This document shows, piece by piece, positions 1 through 39,100 of a stretch of DNA of 64,000 nucleotides. The translations under genes and the position numbers were made by a program. Each line of letters opens with the position of its first letter. Position 1 is the stretch's first letter. The notes below the pieces were generated by a model. It ran no database searches, was not told the DNA's origin, and saw nothing but the letters and a program-made list of their open reading frames with translations. Origin of the DNA: Haliclystus octoradiatus (Eukaryota; Cnidaria; Staurozoa; Stauromedusae; Haliclystidae). Location of the stretch: positions 20,051,482-20,115,481 of the forward strand of contig OU744451.1 of NCBI GenBank assembly GCA_916610825.1, written 5' to 3'.

Positions 1-180
1 TGCGAAAAACAGTTCAGGAGTTCATGAACAGTTCTTGAACGTTAAATGACTCCAAATTTCCTGAACTATTCATGAACAGTTCATGAACCCTCACAGACAG
101 TTCATGGACAGTTCATAAAATTTTGGGGCCATTTAACGTTCATGAACTGTTCATGAACTCCTGAATTTTTTTCGCGGGGG
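1..180. mobile_element. Palindromic GTTCATGAAC element, cut by window edge
   Basis: The window opens inside an inverted-repeat element. It begins TGCGAAAAACAGTTCAGGAG and ends with the mirror image closing TTCGCGGGGG. The interior is dominated by the self-complementary decamer GTTCATGAAC. The missing left end should be CCCC, as in complete copies. Confidence 0.7.
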
Positions 181-295
181 TAGATTGTGAATCGTTTTTA
201 ATTTATTCCAAGTATTGGCTACCCTGAGGTGTTTTCTATAAAACTTGAGAGAACACCTGTCATTTTGATGCTCAGAATATGTATTTTGTGCGCAT

Positions 296-361
296 CCCCT
301 GCGAAAAACAGTTCAGGAGTTCACGAACAGTTCATGAACTCCTGAATTGTTTTCACTGGGG
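296..361. mobile_element. Palindromic GTTCATGAAC element (66 bp)
   Basis: Ends are CCCCTGCGAAAAA and TTTTCACTGGGG. It is flanked on both sides by AT, a possible 2-bp target duplication. It is almost a perfect foldback and is the shortest full copy in the window. Confidence 0.75.
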
Positions 362-1162
362 ATGGCCCTTGCTTAGAGATCTGTATATTTTGGGACGCTA
401 CCATTTAACATCTGGAGCCACAGGATATTGTGGGATGGTTAAACACTTTCATCAAAGCTAAAAGACAATTGTATCGCTGTGATGATCTTAATAGCAATCA
501 ATGTTTAAGCCATATTTTATTTATTATTTATTACTATCCATGAGTTACCCACGTTTCTGGGTTGAATGTGGGCAGAGTTGGAATGATAGATCCCTTGCGA
601 AAAATAGCAGCTATGATGTACAGCCGCAAAGACCGCAAAATTAAAAGATACATTTTGTTTCGATACAAAGAGTAAAAAACAAGAAGAAAAAAAGGATTAT
701 GAAAATACAGATACAGCCAGGGGTACTCAAATGATACTACTGTACTTGCATACATTTTGATTGTGAATTCGGAATTTCTGGTATTGTAGCTCGTCAGGCA
801 TCACAACAACATTATTATTTTTCATTTAATTTATTTAACATCGCAATATCATATGATCGGTACAATTTGCCTTTGCATGTTTTAAAAGGTCGATGTTGAA
901 TAACGGCAATACCTACATCGTTTTCATCAACAGCTGTAAATATAGATAGTCAAGTAAGAACAAAAATGGCAATGATACATATTACAATTATAGTAGTAAT
1001 ATGATCTAATATATCCTATCCTAAACCTTAACCTAACCTATGTAGCATTCTCATAAGATATGTTAGGTTTACTAACCTCAATGTACCTATTTACAATACT
1101 GTAGATGTGAAAAGAGTTTTATTTCAAAATGGTAACAAAAGACCATCTGTTCCCCTGTGAAA
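362..1162. other. Gene-less stretch
   Basis: AT-rich sequence upstream of the first visible ASB exon. No exon with convincing coding content or splice sites was seen. A CCTAACCTAACCTA-like run occurs near 1030-1050 but is too short to call a telomeric tract. Confidence 0.5.
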
Positions 1163-1570
1163 AAATTCATGAACACCTTAAAAACATTCCATGAAAAGTT
1201 CATAAACAGTTCATGAACACCTTGAAAACAGTCCACACAAACTTCATGAAAAGTTCATGAACATTTCACGAAAACTTCTTGAACAGTTCATAAACACCTT
1301 AAAGCATTCCATAAAGAGTTCATGAACAGTTCATGAACACCTTGAAAACATTACATAAAAAGTTCATAAGCAGTTCATGAAAACCTCAAGAACATTCCAT
1401 GAAAACCTCATGAACCCCTTAGAAAATTCCATGAAAAGTTCATAAACAATTCATGAAGACCTTGAGAACATTCCATGAAAATTTCATGATCAGTTCATGA
1501 ACACCTTACCATTCCATGAATATTTCATGAACACCTTGAAAATATTGCATGAAAGGTTCATGTACAGTGC
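1163..1570. repeat. Minisatellite-like array of TTCATGAAC units
   Basis: Degenerate tandem units of roughly 45-50 bp repeat the pattern CACCTTGAAAACATTCCATG, then AAAAGTTCATGAACAGTTCA. About eight to ten units are visible. The unit shares the palindromic decamer with the CCCCTG family, so the array may be an expanded interior of one copy. Confidence 0.6.
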
Positions 1571-1811
1571 ACAAGTAGTATCATGAACTAGTTCATGAAC
1601 GCTAAATGACTCACGTTTCATTGACTTCTTTATGAACTGTTTGCACATATGTTGTACCGCAGATTGTTTGTCCGAAGGGCGTACAACAATTGTAACATAT
1701 TCTGGTCAGCAACTTGTGAGGTTGTGAGGGCTATGTCTCACACGAGGCGAACACCAAGAGTTAGTACTGCATTAATAGTATGCTATGGCTATTGATATTC
1801 TTTCATTGCAG

Positions 1812-4800
1812 ATTTGGTAGCACCGCATTGCATCAAGCTGTTTATTTCAAGCGCAAAGGATGTGCAGAATTGTTGATAAAACATCATGCTCCTTTGGATG
1901 CACAGGAAAACTTTGGAATGACACCACTGGCCGTTGCTATTCGTGAGCATGAATGGTGAGGGGATTTTTTTCTGTCCTTTGTGTAGTGGCTAGGAAGTTG
2001 GACCACGGCCCTCAGGGTCTTAGGTTCAATCCCTGATCGAAGCACCATTGGTTGGCGTTAGGGAGAGCATCCGACAATTACGCGCACAAGATTCAAAATA
2101 CTAACAACATAACCAACCACCCCGGTAAGCAAACCTTTAAGCTTACCCGGCTTGTGGATAAATGATAAATCAAGAAAACAGACAAAACAACATGAATCGT
2201 GAAGGGGTACAACACTGCTATTGACAAAACTCAATTCATCAAAATGAAATTTTCCTTTTTCTGAACTTTCTTATTATACAATTTTATGCTAGAATATTCG
2301 TAACCTGTTCATGAAGATTTTGCCAATTGTCTTAACGTCCACTAGCCTAGTTCCATAGATGTAAACTGGGTTGTATCTTTTGATCTAATAGCTACCCCTG
2401 TGTAACATTTACTGCGTTTATGAACTTTACAAAGATTCATGAGCAGTTTGTGAATATTTTATGAACAGCTCATCAATGTTCATTAATTTCTGAAAGACAT
2501 TTCAATGAAAATTATGGTTGCGGATAGCAATACCTTTTGGCAGATTAGTCATTATTATTAAATATATTTATTTGATGTTATAGGTCCATGGCAAAATTTC
2601 TTCTTGACTGTGGAGCCAATGTTGATATTTGGGATTATCTTGACTGCAATACTCCTTTACATCTGGCTGTTATCGATCGATCCATTCGACTAATTGTTTT
2701 GCTGCTTGATGCTGGAGCGTGTACTAAACTTAAAAATACTAAAAACGAAACAGCATTAGACATAGGTAGGTTACTGTAATATCTGCCGCCTGGTTATTTT
2801 TATGCAGAGGAAGTCAACAACCCTATCACAAACCGATTGTGGAGTTCATAAACCCAACAAAAGCTATTGAAAATTAATAATAAGCTCAAAACACTTGAAC
2901 ATGACTTGAACATGTTACATGACCAGGTTTTCACTTGTTTTCATGAACCCTTAATTAATTGATATATCATCAATTACCATAAACTGTCTCTCCACAGCAC
3001 AGCTTTTTGCAACAAATCCTCTCTAGACTATTCATTAATTTTGGATAAAGACAAGGCTGAGTTAGCCTTTTTTTAATTAAAAGAAATTTGACAATTAGCC
3101 AGTGCAGCAACTGAATTGTTAGGGATGCGAATCGATAGTCAAAGCAGTAATCGAATATTTGACAAATTAGTATTCGATTCGAATCGATTATTAATGGCAA
3201 TCTTTTGTTATATTCCCCTGCGAAAAAATCCATGAGTTCATGAACAGTTCATGAACTTCATGAACAGTTCATGCACAGTTCATGAACAATTCATCAACTT
3301 TTTTTCGCAGGGGTTGTTACCATTCAAGTAGACAATGAAAACACAAACAAAACCTTTTCCACGACTGCGAGAAATGCGTTGAAAATATCATATTCAACTT
3401 GACTATCTTTACATAGATTTTGAAATATTCTGAACACATTAATACAGCAGTTAGTTCGCTCAGTTTGTCCGCTTCGACGTTATAGAATTCATGTGATTCA
3501 ACACGCTTCATGTTTCATCATCAAAGGTTGCTTTATATTTGTAAACAAGCATATTTATTATTAATTTGAATAAACGAATACTTCATTTACTATTCGAATA
3601 ATCGATATTTCATTGATATTCGATTATTAATCGGTTAATCGATATCCGATTCACATCCCTATGAATCGTGAATTTATAACAATTCTAGGGATGTAAAAAT
3701 CAAGGACGCTATGATAAGGATCATAAATACCTGGATCAGTTGATTATTTGACCGATTTAGGCAAAACGTCCCGTTAAACATTTCTTCATATAATAGAATA
3801 CTCTTTCCCGGTAAAGTTATGTTATCTACTCTATTCAAAAAACTTTTATCTGGTTGGTGGAAAAGTTGGCAATTCCATAAATAAATAACAGATTGCTAAC
3901 GTACACAGAATGGCTTGTTACATAGTCTTCGATAGATTCTGGCCAACTTAAAAAGTTTATTCGAAATTTTTCCATACCGGTAATTATTTTGAAAATATAT
4001 ATTTTAAAATTGTTATACTCAATGACCACATGCAAGTAACTAAATTTTATCTTTTTAAATATCTCTTACACTTGTATTCATTTTCTCACTTAGTTAACAC
4101 ATTCTAGTTATTATAGCCCTCTTAATTGGTACTGCAGTAATTTGCAAAATGTATTTTTGCTGATATTTTAGACTTGGCTACTCTGTTGAATAAAGTTACA
4201 TAGAATAGAAGGATACCATTTACCTACATGCATACATGCACATCGTTGGCTAACCTTATTGGTATTTGTAACAATACAGTCAATACCCCTGCAAAATAAT
4301 TTGTTGAGTTAATAAACTGTTCATGAATACCTTAAAACAGTTCATGAACAGTCCATGAACTGTATATTTGATTGTAATATTTAATTCGATAATTTCTATT
4401 TTTATATTAGCCATTTCACAAGGAGAAATTTCTTTATCAATCGTTTTAATACTTCTTGAGTATGGAGCTGCAGCAGAAGTTACTCCATTAAATACAATAA
4501 AAAAGAATGATGCGAATGATGAACAAGTTATAGAAAACGTGGAGGAAATTGCACAAGTATTCACAGATTTGCTTGAATCGTTAAATGGTGAGCCTGTTAT
4601 TTATTGTCTGTAACAACATGCGGCATATGATTCATGGTTTTGTCATATTACTGACTACCCCTGTGAAAAAAGTTCAGGAGTTCATGAACAGTTCATGAAC
4701 AGTTCAGGAAAATTGGAGCCATTTAACGTCCATGAACTGTTTATGAACTGTTCATGAACTCCTGAACTGTTTTTCACAGGGGTATCCTTTTTTTAATGTT

Positions 4801-5408
4801 GTAATCTTGAGTTGTATTTTTATTTTACATTATTCCAAATATAGCAATTACTAATTGAAAGAGAAACGAGAATTACAGTCAGTAATATGACACTGCTAAT
4901 TACATTGGTTAAGTTAAACAAATCTGTTTAATGTCTTATTGTTCAATCTCCAAGTCAAAGTTTGGTTATACAACAGGTTAATACAGTAGTTTACTCTATG
5001 GCGGTTCTCTAGCTAATATCGAGTTGCTGTGTCATACTGATCTTATTACCAAATTAATTTTAAGATTTGACATATTAGAGACATTTTACATTTGAATGGA
5101 TTAATAACAATTATCGGTATATGTATAGCGGTATATGTATTATAATTTTTTCTTGAAGGCACACGTCTTGTTCCCTTACCTCAAATACAGTCGCCACCTG
5201 TTCAAATCGTCCATGAACTAATGTTTGCTGATACAAAACTAAATTACCTTCTTTCTTTTTTTTATACAACTGTTTAGGCACACCAAGAACACTGAAAAGT
5301 CTTTCAAGAATTGCCATTCGGAGACTATTGTCAAAACACCAGCTTAATAAATCTAGTTACCATAAACTGCCAAACACATTACGTGAATATGTTCAAGAAT
5401 TTGGCTGA
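1812..5408 (+). CDS. Ankyrin-repeat and SOCS-box (ASB-like) protein, 3' exons
   Basis: Four exons join in phase: 1812-1955, 2584-2765, 4411-4587 and 5278-5408 (stop TGA 5406-5408), giving 210 visible residues. Exons 1-3 encode ankyrin repeats; seen are GSTALHQAV, LLIKHHAPLDAQ, GMTPLAVAI, LLDCGANVDIWD, NTPLHLAV and LLDAGACTKLKN. An acidic linker follows. The last exon begins GTPRTLKSLSRIAIRRLL and ends KLPNTLREYVQEFG, which is the layout of a SOCS box (BC-box helix, then a Cul-box-like LP motif). In ASB proteins the SOCS box recruits Elongin B/C and Cullin 5, with ankyrin repeats binding the ubiquitination substrate. Exon 1 starts in the middle of a codon, so more ankyrin exons must lie upstream, probably outside the window. 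Introns contain a SINE, a hAT-type MITE and palindromic elements. The ASB class is confident; the paralogue cannot be named. Confidence 0.85.
1978..2172 (+). repeat. tRNA-derived SINE, family 1
   Basis: The head has Pol III-like boxes: an A-box-like TGGCTAGGAAGTTGG and the B box GGTTCAATCCC. The body includes GTTGGCGTTAGGGAGAGCAT and a tail CGGCTTGTGGATAAATGAT. Related copies lie at 19825-20026 and, interrupted, 47891-48278. It sits about 20 bp past the splice donor of the first visible ASB exon. Confidence 0.75.
3120..3661. mobile_element. hAT-type MITE (TAGGGATGCGAATCGA family), copy 1
   Basis: Terminal inverted repeats read TAGGGATGCGAATCGA and ATCCGATTCACATCCCTA. Flanks are TGAATTGT (3112-3119) and TGAATCGT (3662-3669), an 8-bp target duplication with one mismatch, as expected of hAT elements. 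A palindromic CCCCTG element is nested inside at 3215-3313. Only short, unconvincing reading frames occur, so it is non-autonomous. Confidence 0.85.
3215..3313. mobile_element. Palindromic GTTCATGAAC element nested in a hAT MITE (99 bp)
   Basis: Ends CCCCTGCGAAAAAA and TTTTTTTCGCAGGGG are flanked by TT on both sides. The uninterrupted relative at 59358-59918 lacks this block at the same place, which shows it is a separate insertion. Confidence 0.8.
4658..4782. mobile_element. Palindromic GTTCATGAAC element (125 bp)
   Basis: Ends CCCCTGTGAAAAAAGTTCAG and CTGTTTTTCACAGGGG are flanked by TA on both sides. It lies in the last ASB intron. A degraded half copy starts at about 4288. Confidence 0.8.
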
Positions 5409-6172
5409 TGATATTAGTAAAGTACGCTTTTAAAGAAAGCAATTACCATGTAAATAGGCGCAAATGTCATTAATGTAATATTTTATAGAAAAAAGATATA
5501 TTGAAAAATTACATTTATATTACCAATTTCAAAACATGTATTTTAGTTACGGTACAAACTAATAGAAATTTTACCAAAAAAGATCAGAAGTTTTTGATGT
5601 TTAAATTCATTTAGGTAGTTGGCCTAATTAGGAGTTAGACATACTCCCTTATCCTGTGTGATCAGGTCAGACCACAGGCTAACAGCTCAAACACATGGTA
5701 ACAAGTTGTTCTCCTTTCAGTCAGATAAATAAGAAGAGTTTGACCGCAAAACTAGAACTTTGTCAAGCTGTGATTTCCCATCCATCAAATCTCATTAGCC
5801 AATCACCTTTTTAGGAACGAGATTACGAGAAACGACTTTTAGTTAGAAGTTCCTCTAGTTGTTTATGAACTTGATAAACTTCATGAGCTGTTTATGAACA
5901 GTTCATGAACAGCTTTTGAAGAATTTATGAATATAAAATGTCTCGATCTTCATCGACTTCTTTGTGAACTGTTTATGGAAATTGGTCCATTTAACGTACA
6001 TGAACGGGGCAGGAAGACTTGGCTAATGAATGATCAGTTTGTTGTATCAAGATTGCATTTTATTGTCATCTTCTCTTTGCCAATAGTTTTTCCAGCTCGG
6101 GATTGAAGCGAATGCTCTAAATGACTTATTCTTAATTTGCATTTTTCAAAACCCAAACTTTGCATGGGGCAG
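5409..6172. other. Intergenic stretch after the ASB gene
   Basis: It should include the ASB 3' UTR. A degraded GTTCATGAAC-type inverted repeat lies at about 5865-6005. No further gene was seen. Confidence 0.5.
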
Positions 6173-6180
6173 TTATTGCT

Positions 6181-7336
6181 TAGCCTGCGTGCAGACAGAC
6201 TTTTTCTTTAAAAAGTCCATCTGCGCATTAGCGCCAAATTTAATGTACTGATTGTTCTTTCCACTGCCACTTTTTTGGCATTAAATTGTGATTGGCTAAT
6301 AAAATATATGAACAATTGGCTAGTAAGTTAAAATATAGAAAATTGAGTAATAACAGGAAACCACACTAGGTAAATATTTGATTTAATATGAATTCAGTAC
6401 AAACACTTAAGGGCCATTTACACTGCAGCAAAATAGGCACGGTACTCGTCAATTAACACCCGAGGTGTTAACAAGAATGCCGCCCGTGCTGTTTTTTTCA
6501 GGGTTTACACAGCTTATTAAAAACTGTTTTCAAGATCGCCCATGCCTATTTTTACGCGGGCGGAGATTGAAAACTTACAAACTGAATTATAGGTTTCTCA
6601 TTATTTAATGGTTTTACAGGTGAAATTCGATAAATTGAGATTCAATTATGGTAAATAACTTGTAAGGATTCTGTTGAACTGAAAATCACTATGTTTTTCA
6701 TCAATTATAATATTTAAATTTTTGTTACATTCCCTTCTCCATTGAGCAAAATTCAAATACATTTGGGTTAGTCTTTCACCTCCTGAAGATGCTACCACGC
6801 CAGATCAGTACTTCTGTGACAAAACACACATCTAAATTTACGCTCCGCACTCGTAGTTACAATTTGCATAATTAAACCTTATACTACAGAAACTTCATTA
6901 ATTTTCAAAAGAAATATGTAACAAAATATGCTTAATGTGCTTATCTAGCTTTGGTAATCTTTAGTCTGTTACTGATTTTATTAGAAAACCTTGGAATTCC
7001 ACTGTAAAGAGACGCAACTTCTACGATGACGTCATAATTACTGCAAAACGGCACGGTGCCCACTTTTTGAGCGGGCCGAGACTACCTCTAGAAATGATCT
7101 CGGCCCGATCAAAATAGTAGGCACGGTGCCGCTTTTCAATGTCTGAAAAAGCCGTTTAGACAGTGTTTTTGCTTGGCCCGTGCTCAAAAACACTTGACAC
7201 CTTCACACCTTTGATGTGTTAATTGACGAGTACCGTGCCTATTTTGCTGCAGTGTAAATGGCCCTTTAGTACGCGATACTCTGCTCCAATACGCAGACGG
7301 ACAATACGAAGGAAGAGTCTATTTGCACGCAGGCTA
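6181..7336. mobile_element. hAT-like DNA transposon remnant (1156 bp) with a nested element
   Basis: Terminal inverted repeats begin TAGCCTGCGTGCA and close TGCACGCAGGCTA. Flanks TTATTGCT (6173-6180) and TTATTGAT (7337-7344) form an 8-bp duplication with one mismatch. No transposase frame is present. A second element (6411-7264) lies inside it. Confidence 0.8.
6411..7264. mobile_element. Nested MITE with perfect 49-bp terminal inverted repeats
   Basis: Both ends begin GGGCCATTTACACTGCAGCA when read inward and match for 49 bp without a mismatch. Flanks are TTAA (6407-6410) and TTTA (7265-7268), suggesting a TTAA-type target with one change (piggyBac or Kolobok-like). There is no coding capacity. 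Confidence 0.8.
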
Positions 7337-7546
7337 TTATTGATAGCCAGCTGCTGATACTTAGCAATGAATGGTGTTAAAATAGGAGAATCATTTTATA
7401 ATAAACCATTTCATTTACCTTTCAGTGTTTTTGAGGCTGAGTAACGAGTGAAATGTTTTGGTAGGCAAGGACACAGTCTGACCCATTACGGCCCTCACAC
7501 AGTGACGGAAGTGGTCAGCTGCTCCCGAACATCACGACAAGGACCA

Positions 7547-7635
7547 CCCCTGTGAAAAAAGTTCATGAGTTCATGAACGTGAAATTGCCTAAAAGTTCAC
7601 GAACTGTAATGAACTCATGGATTTTTTCACAAGGG
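7547..7635. mobile_element. Palindromic GTTCATGAAC element (89 bp)
   Basis: Ends CCCCTGTGAAAAAAGTTCAT and TTTTTTCACAAGGG are flanked by CA on both sides. Confidence 0.75.
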
Positions 7636-7826
7636 CAGACTCCTTCAATTTATATCTCATCTTAGTGAATAACAATAAACTCCAATAGTGAAGTATGTCT
7701 CCGTTAGAAATGGCAGGTGGAGTAATCACATAGTGAGAGAAATAGCTTCAATTAGATTTATCCATACAGAAGATATTGATAATAATAAAACGTAAACGTT
7801 GATTAACTTTCAAAAGAATCACATAT

Positions 7827-7832
7827 TTTATT
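7827..7832 (-). promoter_or_regulatory. Candidate polyadenylation signal of CYC1
   Basis: Read on the minus strand this is AATAAA, about 170 nt beyond the CYC1 stop codon. It is the nearest canonical hexamer I noticed, but no transcript evidence is available. Confidence 0.4.
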
Positions 7833-7998
7833 GATGGCATAAAATGACTTTACAACTGCCAAGCAATCGGCAAACTATGAACATGCCACAAATGAATTTT
7901 TATTTATTTTTTTATTGTACTATAAGTAAACCTGATCAAAACATAGATTATTTTCGTTTTGTTCAGCATATTATTTTAGTTCTAGCAATTACAATTTT

Positions 7999-10900
7999 TT
8001 ATTTACTTTTGTAGACAATTTTTCTGCTTTTCAATACAGACCAACGGAAACGTTTGTAATACCACACAGTGCCTGTTACCAACACCATAAGAGTTATTGC
8101 CTAAAAACAAGAAATCATATCGTTGTTAATCAGTTGTTCATCAATTCAAATTACAACGAATAGAAATAAATATATCAAAATTATTACATTTTCTCCAACG
8201 ACTGTTTTGCATAGAAGACATGTGTGATACGCTCATTTGAAAAAATCACAATGACAAATCACAGCTTAGCATGTATAACATTGGTTCCATCTGGTAGGTG
8301 ATGATTGGCCAATTTGAATAATTGATGACATTATTTTGTAACAAATTGTAATTGAAATCTTTGAAAAGGCGATAACTCACATCATTTCACAAGTAAATTA
8401 CATTTGCGTGTTTAAAGTGGTCTATGATATTTTGTTTTAAAAATTCACATTTTTTTTTAGTACGTACGGACGAATAATGTATTTTTTTATTATTGGTACG
8501 TACGTAAGAATAATAGGGATTTCGTCAGTATCTGTCCACAGATTACGGACCAATAATCAAAACAATTTGATATATTTGTCCATACGAACCATTAAGGGTA
8601 GCCTTATAAAATAGGGCAAAGGTTTAATCAGCGTATCACTTCATTTGCTAAAATTTTACAAGGCCCAGATGGAGAGTAACGGAATACTGGGGATACTACC
8701 AGGCTTGCGCTCATTGTAAGCCGCTCATGGACTGATTGCTGTATCATTATTATACAGTATATGAATAAAAAGAAGGAAACGATTTAAACAACATTAGTGT
8801 ACCTTTATTCCCATCCTTTTCCTTTCGTCATGCTCGGGAGCTAAACAAATTTGATCAATATCAGAAAATCAAACATCATAATAGATTTCGCACATAGATA
8901 AACGATCAGTATATCTACAGAACAGCGTTAGGAACAGTGCGTGAGGGACCTGTGTGATAGCAATGTGACAATCAAACGATGTATTCAGAGATCGATAAAG
9001 TTGCTAGTTTTGCAATAATATTTCCCCTATTCATTTGATCGACTTTTTACTAGACTTTCAGATAGATTGCTTTCTAAAATGGTCATCCAGTACATGATTG
9101 TACATGCTTAAGCAGTTTGACTCGAGCGGTGCACAGAGTCAGCATTTTTAGACTTAGATTCAATAAAGTCCATAAAGAGAATAAAATAAGTTTTAGTCCA
9201 AGTTGTTAATAGAAGGATATAGACAATTCGTTATCAAATTTCAACGGAAGAGAGTAAGTATCTGTTGCTCAATTTGTAATGAAATAACAAACTTTTTCGT
9301 ATGTAGAGCTATAAGTTGTCTTCTGAAATACATGCAAACAAAGTCAGAAATTTCTTTTATGACATATATACATTACATCTCGATTTTTACTTTCAAATAA
9401 AGAGCGCAGTAAGTATTTAGCTAGTACTATAATGAATTTATAACAGATAACAATAAACAATATTTAGAAAATGAAACACACCTGATGCCCAGGAAAGAAA
9501 CACGCTGACGTCCTTTGCCATTTGACTAACTGTAGCAGGTGTACCTAGAATACAGACAAAAATTTGAAGCAAAATCAGACAATGAAGTCAATCATGAACA
9601 ATTTTTATGCTCAATAATTATACTTCAACCTAAAAGTATTTTTATGATGGCACATTCTGCAAGTCTGCATCTGAGCAAGCAAAAACAATTTCAACAGGAA
9701 ATCACACAGTCAAACTTGTTACAGCGGTCACCTCTAGAAAGCGACCACCTGTCTATAGTGGCCACTCATGTGTAAAATAGTAATTTTCTATTAAATCTAT
9801 TCTGTATATAAAGGCCAACTGCATATAGTGGTCAATGTATCTATTTCTAATAGCTGACTGATATTTACAGGGTTCACTGTACGCAATTGATTCAATAATT
9901 AAATAAATGTTATATTTGTTATGTGAACAGTTCTTACATATATCCAGTGTGTCATTTTTTCCAATAAACACAGTTACAGTCAAACCTGTTATAGTGGTCA
10001 CCTCTATAAAGTGGCCACCTGTCTACAGTGATCACTCTTGCAATGTCTAAAATAGTATTTTCTATTGAATCAAACCTGCATATAAAGGCCACATGTCTAT
10101 AATGGTCAATTTATATATCTCTCGTAGCTGGCTGTTATATACAGGTTTCACTGTAGTTGGTTCGGTCATATTGGCTTTCTATTGGATTAGGATCGCTTTC
10201 ATATTTTACAAAAAACGTTTTGAATAATTCTCTAGTGCCTCATCTGATCCAATCTACATTTTCCTATACTCACCATCTTCATATTCGACAGATTCAGGGT
10301 AGAGTTGTTGTGCCATGGCGATTGCTTGTCCAGGGAAATATAAATTATAATGTAATCCATCTCTCAATTCAATACCGGTTGGAGGGTCATTATATCCAGT
10401 CAAAATGGAGAACACATAATCCTACAATGAAAACAGATTTGAATAAACTTTCTGTATTCCTAATCAATCTGAAAATAATTTAAATTAACTCTTTTGGCTT
10501 GATCGGACAAAATAATCTGATTTTAGACCCTTGTCTTAACAAATTGAAAGTAGAAAACATTTTCAGATTTGCTACAGAGTTGAAGATGCCAGAAGACATA
10601 TGGGTTAACATCATCAGCGTGGCACCAGCAATCCGAATTTGCAAACGTAGTTTGCTGAAGCAAAGGCAAAATTTCAAAGTGTTTATTTTCATTTATTTAT
10701 TTATCGTCAATTTAAAGAAAGTTAATTTTATTATCTTCATATTCCAAATCCAAAGACTTTGCCTTCAGAAATATCAAAACTAAACAAAATCCTTAAAGTG
10801 GGAATAAACCCCCATACCATCTTTACATATGTAGTAGAACCCGACGTGAAAAAAACAATGGCGTAATTTTTTTTTCGATCTGGAAATTATTCCTTGGTGA

Positions 10901-18014: not shown

Positions 18015-18120
18015 AACTGGATTATGCATCTAAGTTGTTGCTCAACGCCCACATGAAATCACACCAAATCCTTCTCAACAGCAACAGAATTTCACAATAT
18101 CAAATCAATGATTCAAGACT

Positions 18121-24100: not shown

Positions 24101-27100
24101 ATAAAGCGATGTGTGATAGTAGAAAACGCATACGATCATATATCAACCAAGAAAGAAATGCAGCACCACTACAGACGTCATCAATAATTCAAGTAATAAA
24201 GACAGCCAGTCAAGAAGCAGATGATGTATTTGAAGACAGCTTCCAGACAATGGAAGAAATGATATCATCTGGACAAACACAAAATAGAAGAGACAGTGAA
24301 CAAGGTGCAACAAATTCGCAAAAGGAATTGACCAAGCAACCACTGCCTACACAACAAAGACGTAGCGTTGATGAAAGAAACCTAGATTTGACAAAGCATG
24401 AAGAAGCATTGGCAAAGCAGGAAGAAGCATTGACAAAGCATGAAGAAGCTACACCAACAAGAGTACCAAGTGGTACACCCATGGTTAGATATAAATTGAG
24501 TTTACCATTCTTTTCGGGAAAGTTAAAGGACTACAGAAAGTTCAGAACGACGTTCAAAACATTGGTAGACAAAGACAATACAGATCAGAATACAAAGCTG
24601 CATGTACTTCGCGGTAGACTAGAAAAGATACCGGCAAGGTTGATTTGGAACATGGAGAATTATGATCAAGCATGGAATAAATTAGACAAAACATACGGCC
24701 GCGAGGATCAAATCACAGACCTATGCTACAAAGAGTGAGATGATTTACGACCAGTAAGAAAAGGAGATGCGGCAGGATTTCTGAACTTTGCAACTACAGT
24801 GCAGGATATAGTCATCCAATTACAGAACGCCAACTGCGAAGCAGATCTGAAATCAATGGGACTACTGAAGACCATTGCATCAAAGATGACGGACGAAGAT
24901 AAGGAACGCTGGGGTAGAGAGGCCCGAGAAAACAAACAAAAAGAAACAGTGCTAGGACTTAACGAATGGTTGGAGAGTGAAAGCATAATCAAAAGTCAAG
25001 CATATTCTCTAGAGCCTAGTACTATGAAAACTAAGACTGGATCCTCACATGCTACACAAAGTAATAACTATACCAGAAAAAGGGAATGTTTCGTCTGCAC
25101 AGAAGATCATTTGGTAGAAGATTGCAAATCATTTCTAGATTCAACTATCGATGAAAGATGGTCAAAAGTAAAGCAAAATAGAGCGTGCTTCTGCTGTCTA
25201 AAAATGGGACATGGGATCAGAGAATGTCACAAGGTAAAGGAGTGCAATTCAGAAGGATGTACCAAGAAGCATCATGGTTTGATCCACAAAGAAGCAACAA
25301 TTTCAGCGGCATCAAAGGAAGATAATAATAAAAAGGTGCAACTGGCAACTACGAGAGTCATAGTAAAAGACAATCATGGTCGCTCAAAAGAAGCCAATGT
25401 CCTGATAGATGCTGGATCGCAACTCACCTTTATAAGAGAAGGATTTTCAAAAAGTTTGGGAATCCAAGGTATCAAAACAAACCTCAATTTGTCAGTGGTT
25501 GGAGGAGTAAGAACTACGACAACTACAAGAAAAGTGTGCATAAGCCTAAGTTCTGTAACAAACAAAGGATTGGAACAAGAAATCAAGGCGATTGAAATGA
25601 AAAAAATATGCGAAAATATCGTCAGCGTAAAAGATAAAGATTTAAATAAGTATGAACATTTGAAGGATGTGAAGTTCAATAATGTCAATGGCTCTGTCGA
25701 TATACTTATTGGTTGTGACAATCCACACTTTCATGTCGGTGAAACAAGGATGGGAAAGCCTGGCACACCAATTGCAATCAACACGATACTTGGATGGGTG
25801 GCATTTGGACCAACTAAGATGTCAACACAGGACTCAACAACAGCAGTGACGAATATGGCAAATGCAACAGAAGAGCAACAAGTGGATCTCACTTCATTCT
25901 GGAAGACAGAAACTTTCGGAGTCAATGGACAAGAAGAAACATCTACAACAATCAAGACAACATCGATCGAAGACATCAAAGCTGGCAAAATGCTGAGAGA
26001 ATCATGCAAGAAAGTCGGTGATAGGTATCAAATTGCCCTACCATGGAAAGAGAGTCCTACAACACTAGAAGACAACTACGAAATGGCCCTGAAAAGATTA
26101 GAGGCAACAGAAAGGAAACTCTCAAAGGACAATGACTTGGCACACGAATATGACAACAAGATCATGGAGTACGAAAAATTGGGTTTCGCAAGGAGATTGA
26201 CAGAAGAAGAGCTTAACAATTACAAAGGATCAAAATATTACATTGCTCACCATGCTGTTATCCGACGAGAGAAGGAATCCACTCCATTGAGGATCGTATT
26301 TGATGCTTCTGCCAAACACAACAATAAAAGCTTGAACGACAGATTGATGAAAGGTCCTGATCTGCTGAATTCACTCTTTGGAATAATTCTTCGATTCAAA
26401 GAAAACCACACGGCGCTTTGTACAGATATTTCCAAGATGTTTCCACGAGTGATGATGCCAATAGAAGACCAACATGTCCACAGATTTCTTTGGCGAAGTA
26501 TGGACACATCAAAGCGACCAACTGTATTTATGATGGAAAGAGTGACATTTGGTGACAAGCCAGCACCAGCTATGGCTCAAACTGTTTTGCTGAGAACGGC
26601 TGAAGACAATGAAAAAGAATTTCCATTAGGTGCCGCATCAGTGAATTCCTTCAGTACAAAAGAACAAGCTCCAAAGACAAAAGACGAAATCATCCAATTG
26701 TTGAAGAATGGAGGGTTCACAATGAAGAAATGGATTTCAAACAATAAGGACTTGTCAACAACATGTGATGATCAAAAAGCCAAAAAGATCATCAAAGAAA
26801 TCAGCATGGGGTGTGTAGAGGAAAAGGTTCTAGGAGCTGTGTGGAAACATGAGGAAGACATCGTCAAATTCAGGGTAAAAGACTTTGAAATTGATGTCCT
26901 GACTAAAAGATCAATTCTGAAAACGATAGCAGCACTGTTCGATCCAATTGGCCTGGCAGCAGCATTTCTTATAAAAGCAAAAATTGGAATGCAACACTTG
27001 TGGATAGAAGGTCTTGGTTGGGATGACAACATTGGAAAAGACACACAAGAATTCTGGCAGCAACTGTTTGAAGAAATGAAAACCTTGAATGAAGTGCAAT

Positions 27101-30100
27101 TCAAAAGATGTTTAACACCAACAAATGCAAAGGGTATACCAAGTCTGCATATATTTTGTGATGCCAGTGAAAATGCCTTTGCAGCATGTGCATACATCAG
27201 ATGGGAAGTCACAAGCGAAGAGAAGGAGGCTGAATCAACATTTGTAGCTGCAAAGACTAGAGTGGCACCCCTCAAACAGCTGACGATACCACGCCTAGAG
27301 TTACAAGGAGCAGTTCTAGCAACCAGATTGGCAAAAACAATACGTGAAGAATGTAGATTCAAGCTAGCCTACACACAATTCTGGTGTGATAGTACAGTAG
27401 TATTATCTTGGATCAAAAGTACAACGAAAGACCTGAAAACGTTCGTGGCAGTAAGAGTTGGAGAAATTCAAACTGAAAGCGACCCTTCTGAATGGCGTTA
27501 TTGTCCGACTACAGAGAATCCAGCAGATGAGGCAACACGTGGCATCTCGGTAAAAGCCCTGGAAGGAAGATGGCAACATGGCCCTGAATTTCTCCAATGC
27601 AAAGAAGAAACCTGGCCGGAAAACATCATAATCAAAGAGAAATCAGATGAAGGACGAAAACAACAAAAAATCACAATTAGCTGCGCAATCACGAAAGTAG
27701 AAGATGAACTACACATTCACAAATTCAACAGTTGGTCAAAAGTCAAGAGAACCATGTGCTATGTGTTCAGATTTATCAATATCTTAAAGAACAAGGGAAC
27801 AATGATCAACAAAGGACCGTTAGACAATGATGAACTACAAAGAGCAGAAATTTCACTTCTAAAGATAGCACAAAAAGAAATGCAGAATGACGTCAATAAA
27901 GGCCGGTATGAACAGTTAACTCCATTTGTTGACGAAAATGGGATAATCCGAGTTGGCGGAAAGATTGACAAAACAGCTACACTACCATACGACCAAAGAC
28001 ATCCGATCCTGATAGCAAGAAATAATGTGCTTTCAAGATTACTGATGATGCAGTGTCACAAAGATGTTCGTCACCATGGCACCGAAAGAGTATTGGCTCA
28101 AAGCAGATTACGATTCTGGATAGTACAAGGAAGACAATTGGCGAAATCCATTGCTACAAATTGCGTCACATGTAAAAGGCTCAGAAGTGTACCTGAAGAA
28201 CAACTGATGGCCGAACTACCAAGCTATAGATTGAAGCCTTTCAGTCCAACGTTTTGTTATGTCGGAATAGATTATTTTGGACCAATCACAGTCAAAATGA
28301 CAAGAAAACGAAGAGAGAAAAGATATGGTGCATTATTCACATGTCTTAACACAAGAGCAATTCATCTAGAAGTCGCTGAAGACATGTCAACAGAAGCGTT
28401 CTTACAAGTATTACGAAGATTTTATGCATGAAGAGGACAGCCAAAATTGATCAATTCTGACAATGGTTCAAACTTCGTAGGTGCAGAGAAAGAATTAAAA
28501 AAGATGATAGAAAACTGGGACAAAGATGCACTCACAGATTTCAATGCAGAAAGGCAAATTTCCTGGAAGTTCAACACGCCCTTGGCATCACATCATGGTG
28601 GGGTCTTTGAAGCAATGGTCAAGTTAGCTAAAAAAGCTATGAAGGCAACGATTGGGGATCATGTTCTAACGGAAGATAGTTTACACACACTACTTTGCGA
28701 GGTGGAACAATTAGTAAATTCTAGACCACTTGCACCCATGTCATCAGATCCTAACGATGGAGCATATTTAACACCAAATCATTTGTTATTGGGACGCTCA
28801 ACAGCAACAGAAAAACAAGGACCATTTGAAGAATCCAAAGATCCAAGTAAAAGATTTCTATTTATACAAACGTTGACGAACCTATTCTGGAAAAAGTGGA
28901 TAAGAGACTATCTACCGACGCTGATGAGACGAAAAAGGTGGTGCAAAGAACAGCGAAAGGTATCAATTGGTGATATAGTTTTAGTGATTGATTCAAATCT
29001 ACCTAGAGGGAAATGGCAAATGGCAAAAGTTATAGAAGTTTATCCAGCGAAAGACAATATGGTTAGGTCAGTTAAAGTTAAAACACAAAGTGGAGAATAC
29101 AATAGACCAATAACAAAACTATGCCTCTTGCTACCTATCGAATTACAATAAGATGAAAGATCTCCTAGATGCTTTCATGGTGGCGGGAATGTTCCGTATG
29201 ATGAAATATAATTAAAAATAATAATAATAGGCTAGACCTAGAAGCGTCAAACCTACGTGTTGTCGTAGCCTTATGATATAGACAGTTACTACGCGCCTAG
29301 ACTTTAGAACTTTTGTAGACTATAAAATATAACCACGTTTTTAGTATTAGAATAATTATATATGTATGTTTATGTTTTACGCCTTGTTGAGCAAAGTTAA
29401 TTGACTTATATTGTTCTATTATGTAAAATAAGAAGAATAGATTTGTAGACACCTTTGTTATGTTATTTTGTATATAAACTCGTTAATATGCCGGTAAAAT
29501 CAATTAGTAAAGTCGAAGAAAGAAGAAGGCTAATTCACGAAGACAGAAGAAGAAGATCAACACAGAAAGATATGAAAGACAGAAAACCCGTGGAAAATTA
29601 CCGATGTAAGAATCACTTATCACTTATATACATAATACTGTCTGTTTATATATCACAATATTTCTATATTTCTATATTTCGATATTTCGATATTTCTGTG
29701 TCTGTCCGCGACTTATGTACGTCTTACTGGCGATATAATACGGATAATCCGTTGTCGGGAAATTATGCAAACATTTGTGTCGAGATAACCGTGTACAGTA
29801 ACAAATTTGTTGTATGAAAAGTATGGGTCTATGACGTTGTTTTAAAATAATATACTTCATCAGATATTTTATTTGATATCCTTGCATTAAAAAATTCAGA
29901 GATTTTGAAAAATTTCATAGGTCGATAATCTAGCGGGCAGCCAAATCGAAGTCAAATTGAAATCCCCAGAACAAAAATATTTTGCTTTGAATTTAAAAGC
30001 TGCGTGTAAATTGTTTGAACAAGTGAAACTTAAAACTGAATCAGTTTTATGATAATTAAAACAATACGAAATACTGAGTTACATTGAATTACCAATATAA

Positions 30101-33100: not shown

Positions 33101-36100
33101 GTCCCAACAATTTCTACCCCTGAAAAAAGATGCAGTTTTTATAATATTTGCATGACAATTACTCCCTCCTACAATAAAAGTTGAACCGTTTGCATAATGT
33201 AATCGCTGGAAAAATTTCGAAGCAAAATTAAGAATCCCAGAAGGAAAATTATTTTATCAGACCCTGACTGTACCTCATGATCCTCTTCGGGATGTTCAGA
33301 TATCTTTCCAGCAACTGTTTCTGAAAACTCAGAAAACATTTTTCCAATTTTCTCTTGTATAATATCAATGGTATTCTTTTGACTCTTCTCAAAAGCCTTG
33401 ACGAAGCTAAGAAATAAAAATTTGACATTTTATAATATGGATATCATTAGTAAACCTTTTGTCCTGTCTACATATTATTATATTGTAAAATACAGCGTTT
33501 AGACCGTGGCCTCACTTCAATGGGAACAGGTTATTGCGGCCTCTCAACAAATTGGCTCGACTCTTTTACATATATGGCTCTGGAGTGACATACACATTAA
33601 ATGGCCCTTTATTTAACGCCACACTAAAATAGGTAGGAATTCTTACATAAAACATTGTACTCCGAACTTGAATAGAGGAATACAGCAACAATACTTTCTA
33701 GCACTTGAAATATCAATATCACTTTAAAATATAGTAGCCTATAACTAGCACTTAATTTATTACAAAGATAGACATTTTTCATCGCACACATTAATGAAAG
33801 CGCGCTTAATAATCTTAATTTCAACATCAGACAATTGTTTTTAGCACTTCTCCGTTAAGTTGGTCTGATCCGATTAGAAAACAATTGGAAGGCCTTGATG
33901 AAATATTTTGTTGTTATTGACCAATTAAACTGTCATGGAAGTTGGAGTCCGAGAAAAATGAAATTGTATCACACACAAAGAAAGTTGTTTCAACACTTCT
34001 GTCTCAAACCTTTCGAATGAAATAAAAGGACATATTTAAATCCACGATATCGGAATTGCATTTACAACTAAGGGTGTACTTCATTTTAAGCGAAGAAAGT
34101 TGTGGCGTGCCACATGTTTTTTGTTATAATGACTTGTGACACTTGTCATTTGTTTCCACTGTCACTACATGTTGATTTTATTTCTTTTCCTTCGGTATCA
34201 ACGTAAAGATCCATAAAGCAGTACCGCTGTACCGTAAATATAAAAAAATATCCATAATATTCATGCCATTAAATTTGGTTCAGTAAAAGCATATAAATAT
34301 ATGATCAAAAACCCTGTGGCCTTTGCTGTTTACATTTTTCCAAAGTTAGATCACAAATGATCAAATCAAGCGCGCCAAGTATTTGTTAAAGTGCTCATAA
34401 GTATTTGAATCACAAATGATGAAATTGGTGCTCTAACCAGCTGTTTAGGTCATCCCGTCTAGTACAGGTCCTATACAGAAATCCTATTGAATGAAGTGTT
34501 TAAGCCAATTAAGTTCGCAAAACCATTATTTAAGAACACAAATAAATTAAACCCATACTACATAGACGGTCCCTTTTATCACAGACCACAATTTTGTGTA
34601 AAAACAAAAAAAACTTACTTTGCAAAATGATTTGTCATTTCCTTTGAAATATCTTTCACAGTAAGCTTTGAATCAGTATTTTTTTGCAGAAGATCTACAG
34701 CTTTGCGTAAATCTTTAGCAAGCGGTTCTTGTCCCTTGGTTTGGTCCGTCTTTATATTTCCAAGATGCGATTCTAATTGACGAAGGTCTGGAATAAATGA
34801 TTAATAACAGGTTAGAGGTTAGCACAAGTAGAGATTTGATACTTCTGTGTTGGTAGACACCTAAGTGGGATATTTGTTTTTCATATTTTTTATTTGTTCT
34901 TTCGCATTAGCCAAGTTTTAACAAGTTGACACTGTCAACAAAGGGATTTCAATGCCACATTTTTTGCGTTCTTCTATTGCAGTGTAACCCCCTTAAACGC
35001 AATCTGGACAGCAGAAATTCCCAATTATTTGCAACCAGGCTTTGAAACTCTATAAATAATTTTCTGTAATAATAAAGTCCTTGCTAAACACTTTCTGATA
35101 AGTTTTGCAAATTCAGTTAAATGCAATGGAAATCATTGACAATTTTGACTAGCACTCAAGCAGGTTAAATTGTATTACAATATATATTGTATCAGCTTCC
35201 TATAATAAAGTTAAACAAAAGCGCCCTTCACTGATCTGTCAATTATTGGATAATGTAGGACAAATTTTCATGCTCTACAATGCTCTTACAGCTTGGGGTA
35301 GAATTTATCTGTAAGCAGACACGCACAAACAAGCATTTGTCCAAGACAAATGGGCCCTTTCCAAATTCAAGTATGGGTATGTACTGTCAGATGTCTCAAA
35401 CTATACAATTATGTGCATCTCATGTGCCACACAATTATAAAATTTACAATGATATAACAGCCAGTCATGAGAGGAAGACAAATTGACCACTATAGACAGG
35501 GGGCCTTTATATACAGGGTTGACTCGATAGAAATGTTATTTTAGACATACAGAGAGAAAGGTGTTGAAATTTTTTCAATGCCTGCGGCCACATAAATCTG
35601 CCAAGCAAGCAATCGGAACTGACATTATTTAAAGCTTGAGAATACTTTTTTTAAATGTGCTTGCAGGAATTTCATTGTTCAATAATTGTGCCTGTAACCG
35701 CCGGCCCCAGTGGTCCCAACATTTTTTACCCCTGCAAAGAGTGACCATATACAGTAGACAGGTAGCTGTTGTATAGAGGTGACCGTCAAGGTTAAAGGTT
35801 TCGCTTTTATCTCGAAAATACTTACATTCTGATGTACCACTTGAGAACGCATTGTTCAATTGCGACAACATTAAATTGGAAGTCTTGTTAAAAGAAGGTA
35901 CAAGATTATTTCTGATTTCATCTCGGAACGTTGACGTAATGGTCTTGTGCATGGCATTAGAACAGGACTGTGCAAATGCATTGGATACATCCTGAAACAT
36001 GTAATTAAATGAATATTACACAGTTTACTAATGTAGCATATTCAACAGTGTATGTCAAACTGGTTCTAAAAGTCTTGCTATTGCGCGACCATGGCTGATA

Positions 36101-39100
36101 ATCCATGTGGAAGCAGCTCATGAAGTATTAGCCTGTGTACCAGCACCAAGGTTTGTTCTGAAACCATAGGGTCTGTGAACTAATATGTGATTTTTAGCCC
36201 AACATTTCCCCATGAGTTTGGGATATAATTTATGCGTTACGTCGTATTATCATTAAGATCATTGTCGCTGCTAGTAACTATGACGTGTCTGACAAAAAGT
36301 TGTTATTTTATGACAATTGATATTTTGTGACAGAGTGTGAGTTAATTTAACAAAATTATATAGGTGTTACTTACAATGGACTAAAAAACACATTACTTCT
36401 CAGAGCCTATGACTTCAGAAGCAAGCCTCGGGGCTGGTACGCAGGCTAGTGAAGTCTTTGATTGTGAAATAGATGGCACTTCATGAACAGTTCATTAGAA
36501 ATGACAATTCAGCGATGAATAACTTGCATGAGCAATTCTTCATGAACATGACAGCGAAATGTCCACTAAGTGTCTGTTTCATGAACTGTACTTTGTAATT
36601 TTATTATTAGCAGTTGTTATTACTGTAATACTGATTGATTATTTATCGCTGTAAACAAAAATATAAATAAAGTTCCAACATTTGAAAGTTCTATAAACTG
36701 TACATGGCTTTTATTTTTACACTGTAAAAAACATGATAGATCTACATTCAGAATAAGATAATTATCTGTTTACCTTGCTCTTGGCAATATTCTCCATGTC
36801 TTCTCGGACTTTTTTCTCAATTGAAGACATTTTCTAAAGAAAGATAAATATGAACAAGCATTTGATTGATTTTATAAAAATGGATGATTTTAAACAGAGG
36901 TTAGATACTGGATGAAATTTTATAAATATTACTACTACACATTCTAAAATTGAAATCAATAAAAATTAAATCAAACAGATTGTGAGATAGCGCTAGTCTC
37001 CTAGAGGATATTTCAATATAATTTTTTCTTCTGTGATCGTTTTGTTACCTACAATCGTTCGTTGTTATTCTGAGGGGTATTAGTCAATTTCTGCCTTCAA
37101 ATTAATAGCTCTCCTTAATAAGGGAGAAAGATTTCCCTGAGACGGAAAATCAAAGTTTGGGCAATTTCCAGTTCATGAACTCATGAACATTTTTCGCAGG
37201 GGAAATTTCAAACTGTTAACAAAAATAAAATTACTGAAACCACCCCTGCGAAAAAAATCCATGAGTTTATGAACAGTTCATGAACTTCATGAACAGTTCA
37301 TGAACATTTTTTTGTTAGTTCATGAACAGTTCATGAACAGTCACAAAGAGTTCATGAACACTTCATGAACCAGTAGTTCATGAACTCATGAACTTTTTTC
37401 GCAGGGGCATCCAAGATGTTTGCACTTACAACAACAACTTCAGCGTTAACTTTATCCATTGATGATCTTATGGTGTTATTTAGAGCTGCAGAAAAAATAC
37501 ACGAGAAATTCACAACATGGAAATGATAACCATTATACAATGTGCATTGCACTATAACAAAAATTCTTCGATCAATCTGATTGGTTTAGAGTTACAAGCC
37601 AACTCACCATATCAACGCAGAACAAACTACGGTTTGAAAACAACGCAATCGATCATTCAATTCAAACTTGATATCACAGAAATAAGAATTTACAATTTTA
37701 TCAGGAATTTTCAAAAACTTGAACAAACTATGAATTAGATGGTCCAATAAATTGTAGATTTTGCAACTTATTATAGATTTGCGTATACCATGCCGATTGT
37801 ATTTGCATTTTAGTTAAGAAATGCTTTGCGTAAAATCACTGTCCTCGTAAAATCTATTGTAAAAGCTAAAGTGATTGTTCTGTTTCATCTGTTTAACAAC
37901 TCAACTGAGCTTTGCAAATTACTGTCATTGCCAGGGCCCGGCAAAAGATTCAGCCTTCCGGAATCCTAGGGGCATTTCAACATTTTCTCCCAAATTTTTT
38001 GTTGTTGAAGATTGACCAACAAATCATAAAATTATCAATTTCATTTTGAATTTGCTGTAACCTTTCAGAATCTAGGATTGCAGGATACCTATTTTTGTCA
38101 GGCCCTTGACATTGCTATCTTATTCAGTCGTATAGATCAGAATTATAGGATTATAAGATTATCAGATATGGAGTCAGTCAGTAATAAATAACTTTAACTA
38201 ATTGGCAAAAATCATGAAAGGATCAAATTGTAGAAAAATATGAAATAAGAAGATCAATACATTAAAAAATCTGATATATTGTCTGGCTACAAACAACCTT
38301 ATGAAATTGACTGCGTTTTAACTCACTAGGTAAAATTGATTCTCTCATGCCCTCTTTTATTGTGGAGACGGTTTTCTCCTTAATTGTGGCCAGCAAAGGT
38401 GCTGAGAAGGTTTGAAGCAAATGTGCTTCTCTTTCTTGACTACCATATTTCATTTCGTTAAAATGAGCATCTAATTTAGTATCTAATGAAATATGTTAAA
38501 GGAAACAATCAATAGTGGGTAACTAGATTACAAGCATAAATGAAAGTAGCACAATCAACCTCAAGTGAGCCAAGTAATGCAGACATTATCGCCTTTTTGA
38601 AGATGTCTGTAATGGAGACGTCTGTACCACATTAAACCTGTGAAAACAGTTCATGGACGTTAGATGGCCTGATTTCATGAAGTGTTTATTCAAAGTTTAT
38701 GGACTGTTTGTAAAGCCCTGGCCAATAAATCTTCACTAATCCACATAACATATCACTGATGTTGACAAAAATGAAATAAAATAAATCCTACCAATGTTGA
38801 TGAAAGTAAAAGTTCATTCGGCCACAGCCAAGATCATCTTCATCATCATCATCATCATTTATTGAGTAAACCTATCCAAGCCAATTCAGGCTTTTTCATT
38901 GAAGATGTTGATCCTACCAATGACTAAATCTTACCAATGTTGGCTAAATAAAAAGTAATTCGGCCGGGGCTCAAGGTGTCCATGCTGAAGTTTTCAGAAA
39001 TAAATTAATGGTCCATGAATTCAGTCAGATTCAGAATTCTTCTGCTAGAGGTATGACTCTTTCATAGAGCAATGCTGGTAAATGGCTCTTATAATTGATC

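What the first reader, a model, noticed from the sequence alone, without database searches (positions are those of the whole stretch)
1..37407. Palindromic element family with CCCCTGYG ends and 2-bp target duplications of varied sequence
Five complete copies (296-361, 3215-3313, 4658-4782, 7547-7635, 37243-37407) end in CCCCTG..CAGGGG-like repeats and are flanked by AT, TT, TA, CA and CA respectively, identical on both sides. Interiors are made of GTTCATGAAC, a decamer that is its own reverse complement. Sizes range from 66 to 165 bp. Dinucleotide duplications that are not limited to TA fit no common superfamily I can name, and the near-total palindromy suggests an unusual mobile or hairpin-driven replicating sequence.
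Basis: partly seen in the sequence, partly recalled or inferred. Interest (0 to 1): 0.75.

Follow-up and report, generated by a model that had tools for sequence, protein, structure and literature searches.

The report
Palindromic mini-transposon family, two-base duplications
A large family of tiny non-coding jumping DNA pieces in an animal genome inserts by duplicating just two bases of varied sequence; it behaves like an ordinary cut-and-paste mini-transposon, but the enzyme that moves it was not found.

Summary
All five copies exist as described, a sixth straddles the window start, and each is flanked by a direct 2-bp repeat. Of 56 paired elements scored, 32 have identical flanking dinucleotides, against 5.9 in shuffles; with both ends perfect, 13 of 17. 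At uninterrupted paralogous sites of the window 3215 copy the second dinucleotide is missing in all 10 fetched, one of them in an ambiguous T run. So these are true insertions with a 2-bp target duplication. TA, TT, AA and AT are commonest, within a weak palindromic AC|NN|GT preference. The interior is an array of the GTTCATGAAC palindrome, often at 11-bp spacing. The 262-Mb genome, probably of a non-bilaterian animal, holds 1,179 exact 14-bp ends and 6,283 exact two-palindrome arrays (1 and 0 in reversed controls). It is a MITE family. Best mechanism: cut-and-paste in trans by a DDE transposase with a 2-bp stagger. The arms resemble a CACTA element of the same genome, but the CACTA pair examined ends CACTATG and shows longer duplications. 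No autonomous partner was found. Hairpin-driven replication is unsupported and unnecessary.

The parts
1..180 (.). Copy 1 (starts 4 bases before the window), TA duplication (right copy 181-182)
296..361 (.). Copy 2, 66 bp, AT duplication (294-295 / 362-363)
3215..3313 (.). Copy 3, 99 bp, TT duplication (3213-3214 / 3314-3315), nested in another dispersed repeat; empty sites known
4658..4782 (.). Copy 4, 125 bp, TA duplication (4656-4657 / 4783-4784)
7547..7635 (.). Copy 5, 89 bp, CA duplication (7545-7546 / 7636-7637)
37243..37407 (.). Copy 6, 165 bp, CA duplication (37241-37242 / 37408-37409), six exact decamers
1152..1600 (+). Degraded long relative: perfect left end at 1152, decamer-like repeats to about 1600, no matching right end found within 700 bp
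2395..2470 (+). Probable degraded copy, left end CCCCTGTGTAAC (right limit by eye)
4286..4360 (+). Degraded copy, left end CCCCTGCAAAAT (right limit by the last decamer-like repeat)
37171..37202 (.). Right-end remnant (CGCAGGGG at 37202)
3121..3661 (.). Host repeat (AGGGATG..CATCCCT, bounds read by eye) into which copy 3 inserted
53534..53765 (-). Uninterrupted copy of the host repeat: empty site with a single TT
59358..59518 (+). Second uninterrupted copy of the host repeat; no element at the matching place, but the 2-base gap falls elsewhere in the alignment

Best explanation
These are MITEs: short, non-coding, non-autonomous DNA transposons with imperfect terminal inverted repeats (CCCCTGYGAAAA...) and arms built from a repeated palindromic decamer. 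Shown: they insert between the two copies of a 2-bp target duplication. Inferred: a DDE transposase supplied in trans binds the ends and the decamer arrays (a palindrome every 11 bp puts sites on one face of the helix), excises the element and joins it to a target cut with a 2-bp stagger, preferring a loose AC|NN|GT palindrome; host repair makes the dinucleotide duplication. Leading guess for the enzyme (about 0.4): a member or relative of the CMC (CACTA-like) clade, because a CACTA element of the same genome also carries short subterminal motifs spaced 11 bp apart, and 2-bp duplications are known in that clade. The enzyme's gene was not found. The confidence below is for the MITE and 2-bp cut-and-paste reading, not for the CMC guess.
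For: 2-bp flank identity: 32 of 56 paired elements (both ends at most 2 mismatches in 11), 24 of 37 (at most 1), 13 of 17 (perfect); shuffled means 5.9, 4.2 and 2.4. Extension to 3 bp holds in only 1 of 56, so the duplication is 2 bp. In another set, 7 of 9 facing pairs of exact ends on contig C1 match. Empty sites: joined flanks of copy 3 match 40 of 40 scored genomic places (302 candidates) without the element; in 10 of 10 fetched junctions the second TT is missing, one of them (L087) lying in a T run that cannot be counted cleanly. In loci already held, 10 of 19 hand-picked alignments, covering 5 of 8 insertions, show a 2-nt gap exactly at the junction. Target symmetry: C at -3 in 32 of 64 flanks (p 1.9e-9), A at -4 in 32 of 64 (p 0.003); C at -3 in 30 of 100 exact ends on C1, a few of which lie in fetched loci (p 0.002). 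Decamer spacing peaks at 11 bp (43 pairs; next 22 bp, 16) in 56 elements. No coding capacity: longest stop-free run 65 aa, median 31, in 32 elements. Two CACTA elements of this genome, L077 and L078, end CACTATG; L077 carries GTTGTGAAAAA-type subterminal repeats, with 11-bp spacing measured in its right arm.
Against: 24 of 56 pairs lack a matching dinucleotide; some are tandem-array units (L016) or false pairs inside a CACTA element (L075, L076), but 4 of 17 perfect-ended pairs also lack it. In one search, 9 of 19 alignments are not clean (gap shifted, or of another size), and of the 10 clean ones L019 is weak (mismatches beside the gap). Only 7 of 32 insertions have both C at -3 and G at +3, so the target preference is weak. 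29 of the scanned loci were chosen for likeness to copy 6, so the sample is not random. For the CMC guess: ends are CC..GG, not the CA..TG usual in that clade; the CACTA pair examined has duplications of 3 bp (L078) and 3-4 bp (L077); L077's left arm gave no clear 11-bp peak because of a microsatellite; none of 10 fetched PF02992 loci carries these ends and PF18759 gave no match.
Confidence: 0.88

Rival explanations
1. The partner is a PHIS-type transposon (Harbinger/ISL2EU/PHISTA), in which 0-, 2- or 3-bp duplications occur.
For: PF13359 (DDE_Tnp_4) genes are abundant here: 414 candidates, 150 scored and matched, many with long open frames. PHIS groups with 2-bp duplications exist: ISL2EU (AT) and PHISTA (TA) (PMC4482050, passages; PMC12730594, passages).
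Against: ISL2EU duplicates AT in A|AT|T; here AT is 3 of 32. None of the 30 best PF13359 loci, fetched with 1.5 kb flanks, is bounded by these ends, though ends farther out would have been missed. Of 11 PF13359 hits on C1 below 16 Mb, the nearest to an exact end listed lies 7.9 kb away, and that end is one of a facing pair 195 bp long (compared by hand; both lists are capped at 100 places).
Confidence: 0.2
2. A Tc1/mariner relative with relaxed target choice.
For: 2-bp duplication, and TA is the commonest dinucleotide (8 of 32; 23 of 100).
Against: 24 of 32 duplications are not TA. PF13358 (DDE_3) gives 0 matches in the genome, while the model rings in 3 of 14 control genomes. Other Tc1/mariner models were not searched.
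Confidence: 0.05
3. A so far unnamed transposase superfamily, without a Pfam model, moves the family.
For: No group in the passages I read combines CC..GG ends, unrestricted 2-bp duplications and an AC|NN|GT target. None of the five transposase models searched (PF13359, PF02992, PF18759, PF13358, PF18758) could be linked to these ends.
Against: The searches were few and only part of their matches was examined for ends; an extinct partner, or one missed among the 262 Mb, is as likely. Unclassified 2-bp-duplication elements are, from memory, already catalogued in Repbase.
Confidence: 0.3
4. Hairpin-driven or self-primed replication of a palindrome.
For: All five complete copies fold far better than shuffles (z -7 to -17).
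Against: 2-bp duplications with the second dinucleotide missing at empty sites and recurrent defined ends point to a transposase. Palindromy is expected of paired subterminal arrays.
Confidence: 0.03
5. Simple satellite or recombination spread of GTTCATGAAC repeats without transposition.
For: Tandem arrays exist: L016 has about ten 97-bp units, and internal duplications occur (L005).
Against: Dispersed copies with defined ends, duplications and empty sites.
Confidence: 0.02

Closest known systems
MITEs in general (Tourist, Stowaway recalled; CMITE of corals, PMC2872659: abstract and first of four parts of the text read)
   Same: Short, non-coding, inverted-repeat ends, high copy number. CMITEs also form tandem arrays, as seen in L016 for this family.
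   Different: CMITE proliferation is tied by its authors to piggyBac-like transposons, and the 60-base internal consensus printed in that paper is different. Here the duplication is a varied dinucleotide and the interior is a palindromic decamer array.
[quoted passage not shown]
   Same: 2- to 5-bp duplications in the clade, 2 bp in PlavakaA. The CACTA element L077 of this genome has short repeated subterminal motifs, spaced 11 bp in its right arm.
   Different: Ends CCCC..GGGG instead of the CA..TG said to be usual in the clade. The CACTA pair examined here shows duplications of 3 bp or more. No linked transposase found.
PHIS: Harbinger, ISL2EU, PHISTA (PMC4482050, PMC12730594: passages read)
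   Same: Some groups duplicate 2 bp at a short palindromic target (ISL2EU A|AT|T).
   Different: Their dinucleotide is fixed (AT or TA); here nine dinucleotides occur among 32. No linked PF13359 gene found in the part examined.
IS30 family of bacteria (recalled; no call tested it)
   Same: 2- to 3-bp duplications of variable sequence and palindromic target preference.
   Different: Bacterial; no eukaryotic counterpart was looked for.

Membership tests
MITE | Short (under about 600 bp), non-coding | tested here: met
   55-270 bp, longest stop-free run 65 aa in 32 elements; the pairing rule itself allowed only 40-450 bp
MITE | Terminal inverted repeats | tested here: met
   Median 15.5 bp with at most 2 mismatches in 32 elements
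MITE | Target-site duplication, supported by empty sites | tested here: met
   32 of 56; 10 of 10 fetched empty sites lack the second TT, one in an ambiguous T run
MITE | High copy number | tested here: met
   1,179 exact 14-mers, 1 in reversed control; 1,294 longer ends, 0 in control
MITE | Autonomous partner with the same ends | tested here: inconclusive
   Not found. L061, L062, L073 and L074 (stretches between facing exact ends) hold further MITEs; L073 and L074 have no frame above 124 aa, L061 and L062 were read by eye. Of 7 longer facing pairs (4.7-17.3 kb), 1 matched in flanks; its left end is a complete 93-bp MITE and its right end looks like part of one
CACTA/EnSpm (CMC) | CACTA/CACTG ends | tested here: not met
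   CCCCTGYG ends
CACTA/EnSpm (CMC) | 3-bp duplication (2 to 5 bp in the wider clade) | tested here: not met
   2 bp; 3-bp match 1 of 56; within the range of the wider clade
CACTA/EnSpm (CMC) | Short repeated subterminal motifs | tested here: met
   Decamers at 11-bp spacing; compare L077
CACTA/EnSpm (CMC) | Transposase_21-type gene between the same ends | tested here: inconclusive
   36 PF02992 matches; 10 loci fetched, none with these ends. L077/L078 end CACTATG at both ends; for L075/L076 only one end (CATAGTG) was seen. A weak group of 17 matches was not delimited
ISL2EU/PHIS | AT duplication in A|AT|T | tested here: not met
   AT in 3 of 32
Tc1/mariner | TA duplication | tested here: not met
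   TA in 8 of 32
piggyBac | TTAA duplication | tested here: not met
   4-bp match 0 of 56
hAT | 8-bp duplication (5-8 bp in variants) | tested here: not met
   4-bp match 0 of 56; CAGGGG would be in the reverse orientation for hAT (recalled)

The most novel reading that the evidence does not exclude
An undescribed branch of DDE transposases, inside or beside the CMC clade, that cuts targets with a 2-bp stagger at loose AC|NN|GT palindromes and recognises its ends through helically phased palindromic decamers, so far visible only through its many MITEs.
Probability: 0.3. Interest if true: 0.6.

Novelty: new variant of a known kind. Interest (0 to 1): 0.35.

Why it matters
The dinucleotide duplication is a fingerprint of the enzyme's cut. 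A family with a varied 2-bp duplication, a palindromic target preference and arms made of phased palindromes narrows the search for its transposase and gives a ready test bed (more than a thousand exact ends, several copies nested in other repeats) for how end arrays and target choice work in a CACTA-like system. As a mobile element it is otherwise ordinary.

Tried and rejected
Autonomous partner, by gene: PF13359 (150 scored, 30 loci with 1.5-kb flanks; none bounded by the ends; L057 carries a MITE copy and L055 the right part of the same copy). PF02992 (36 matches, 10 loci fetched, 4 longer stretches read; CACTATG ends at L077/L078). PF18759 Plavaka: none, but the model rang nowhere in the controls, so this does not show absence. 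PF13358: none. PF18758 KDZ: 42 matches, the one on C1 below 16 Mb lying about 77 kb from the nearest listed end (by hand).

Autonomous partner, by ends: four stretches between facing exact ends (L061, L062, L073, L074) showed further MITEs; L073 has two frames of 113 and 124 aa, L074 none above 100, and L061 and L062 were only read by eye. Seven longer facing pairs had flanks read (14 of the 16 stretches fetched; the other two were unpaired and unused): 6 of 7 do not match, and the one match dissolves into a complete MITE at one end and a MITE-like stretch at the other. Unpaired ends in L004, L005, L015, L017, L028 look by eye like mutated or truncated copies.

Papers: end sequences as text gave 120 papers; the 20 listed are biomedical by title, none about transposons. 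Decamer arrays as text gave no paper. Searches on 2-bp duplications, CACTA/EnSpm ends and MITEs gave 0, 2, 5, 124 and 112 papers, of which I opened PMC10741241 (passages) and PMC2872659 (abstract and part 1 of 4); (ISL2EU, 13 papers) led to PMC4482050 and PMC12730594; (Lanisha) gave only PMC12730594; (subterminal repeats) was seen as a listing only. The library is open-access only, and Repbase was not available, so no claim is made that the family is absent from print.

An alignment of L055/L057/L060 intended as an empty-site test was uninformative because L055 and L057 share the insertion.
Full report
What was checked. The window lies in a 261.9-Mb genome of 33 contigs (C7:20051482-20115481). 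The five reported elements are present as described. A sixth begins four bases before the window: the genome reads ACTA|CCCC then TGCG at window base 1, and TAGATT follows base 180, giving a TA duplication. The window has 14 element-like ends and 27 exact decamers, against 0.43 and 0.125 expected from 40 order-1 simulations.

Is the dinucleotide duplication real? The window and the 77 loci over 1 kb then held (L002-L078; L001 left out because it repeats the window) were scanned; 29 of these loci were chosen for likeness to copy 6, the others for transposase genes or facing ends. 56 simple pairs of ends (at most 2 mismatches in 11, 40-450 bp apart, no further left end between, duplicates dropped) were scored without regard to flanks. 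32 of 56 have identical dinucleotides; shifting both flanks together by 1 to 3 bases in either direction gives 1 to 6. With at most 1 mismatch it is 24 of 37, and with perfect ends 13 of 17; shuffled means are 5.9, 4.2 and 2.4. A 3-bp match is found in 1 of 56 and a 4-bp match in none, so the duplication is 2 bp. The dinucleotides are TA 8, TT 6, AA 5, CT 3, AT 3, CA 3, AG 2, TG 1, GA 1. A list of 100 exact ends on contig C1 gave 9 facing pairs, of which 7 match.

Empty sites. Copy 3 (3215-3313) sits in another dispersed repeat. Its joined flanks match 40 of 40 scored genomic places (of 302 candidates) without the element. The junction was fetched for 10 of these. In all 10 the second TT of the occupied site is missing; nine read plainly with one TT, and one (L087) lies in a longer T run and cannot be counted cleanly. 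In loci already held, one search listed 49 junction-spanning hits (my count), some of them to the same locus or to other decamer arrays; 19 of them, covering 8 insertions, were picked by hand and displayed. 10 of 19, covering 5 insertions (window 3215 TT, L009 AA, L025 TT, L023 AA, and weakly L019 TA), show a two-base gap exactly at the junction. The other 9 have the gap shifted or of another size, and L008, L062 and L074 have no clean case.

Target. In the 64 flanks of the 32 duplicated insertions, C stands at -3 in 32 (background 0.17, p 1.9e-9) and A at -4 in 32 (p 0.003); by symmetry this is AC|NN|GT around the duplicated pair. In the 100 C1 ends (position -8 was required not to be C; a few ends lie in fetched loci; duplications not verified for most), C at -3 is 30 (p 0.002), A at -4 is 44 and G at -7 is 38. 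Only 7 of 32 insertions have both C and G, so this is a preference and not a rule.

Anatomy. The 32 duplicated elements are 55-270 bp (median 194.5), with imperfect inverted ends (median run 15.5 bp), 39% G+C and no coding capacity. Two end types recur: CCCCTGYGAAAAACAGTTCAGGAG and CCCCTGYGAAAAAAATCCATGAG. The interior is an array of GTTCATGAAC; in the 56 pairs, successive decamers lie 11 bp apart in 43 cases, then 22 (16), 21 and 26 (13 each). An 11-bp period is about one helical turn, so the sites would face one side of the helix; that they are protein-binding sites is inference. Single strands of the five complete window copies fold strongly (z -7 to -17), as any such sequence must.

Abundance. 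The 14-mer CCCCTGYGAAAAAA occurs 1,179 times (reversed control 1), a longer end pattern 1,294 times (control 0) and GTTCATGAACAGTTCATGAAC 6,283 times (control 0). Density is uneven: 3 ends in 179 kb of 44 loci chosen for transposase genes (several of them copies of one another) against 14 in the window.

Host. The mitochondrial contig C33 encodes COX1 with 8 in-frame TGA. Of its 3 AGA/AGG codons, against the two solved COX1 chains displayed, one aligns with Arg in both, one with Arg and Lys, and one with Gln and Lys. TGA = Trp with AGR = Arg is the code recalled for cnidarians, sponges and placozoans, so the host is probably a non-bilaterian animal. Its species is not known.

Partner. Five transposase models were searched: PF13359, PF02992, PF18759, PF13358, PF18758. 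CACTA elements are present (L077, L078; 7.3 and 7.2 kb; CACTATG ends; flanks CTTCATTT/ATTTCATA and TTGACATA/ATATATCA, that is, ATTT and ATA duplications). L077's arms carry repeated GTTGTGAAAAA-type motifs; in its right arm the spacing peaks at 50 and at 11 bp, while a microsatellite swamps the left arm. This likeness, and the 2-bp duplications of some CMCT groups (PMC12730594, passages and section 16), are the basis for a CMC-like enzyme as the leading guess (about 0.4). The ends and the duplication of this family do not meet the CACTA definition, so it is not filed there.

Verdict. It is a MITE family, moved most likely by cut and paste with a 2-bp stagger. The striking palindromy is explained by subterminal arrays of a palindromic motif, and the hairpin-replication idea is not needed. 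What remains open is which transposase makes varied 2-bp duplications at CC..GG ends.

Noticed in passing
L016:280-1250: About ten tandem units of 97 bp that look like a partial MITE plus spacer: a satellite apparently born from this family.
   Followed up: partly
window 3121-3661, 53534-53765, 59358-59518: A second dispersed repeat with AGGGATG..CATCCCT ends, matched at 40 scored places in the genome.
   Followed up: partly
L077, L078: Two CACTA elements of 7.2-7.3 kb, 99.7% identical over 6.9 kb, so probably recently active.
   Followed up: partly
window 24043-29151 and 54167-58228: Long retrotransposon-like open frames: one run broken by in-frame stops (BEL/Pao-like by eye) and one of 1,353 codons (copia-like by eye).
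   Followed up: no
window 1812-5410: Exons that read by eye as an ankyrin-repeat and SOCS-box (ASB-like) gene; copies 3 and 4 and some degraded copies would lie in its introns.
   Followed up: no
window 9979-10153, 48101-47932, 40198-40027 and others: A further repeat (CCTGTATATAAAGGCCACCTGTCTATAGTGG..) that recurs in many fetched loci and served as an insertion target (L023).
   Followed up: no
G000: 17 weak PF02992 matches to the same part of the profile (about 7-64) with near-equal scores, 12 of them in 115-aa frames: an undelimited multi-copy CMC-like family, worth testing as the partner.
   Followed up: no
G000 C1, flanks of 100 ends: G at -7 in 38 of 100 flanks, unexplained; weaker in the duplicated set (19 of 64, p 0.0096).
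   Followed up: partly
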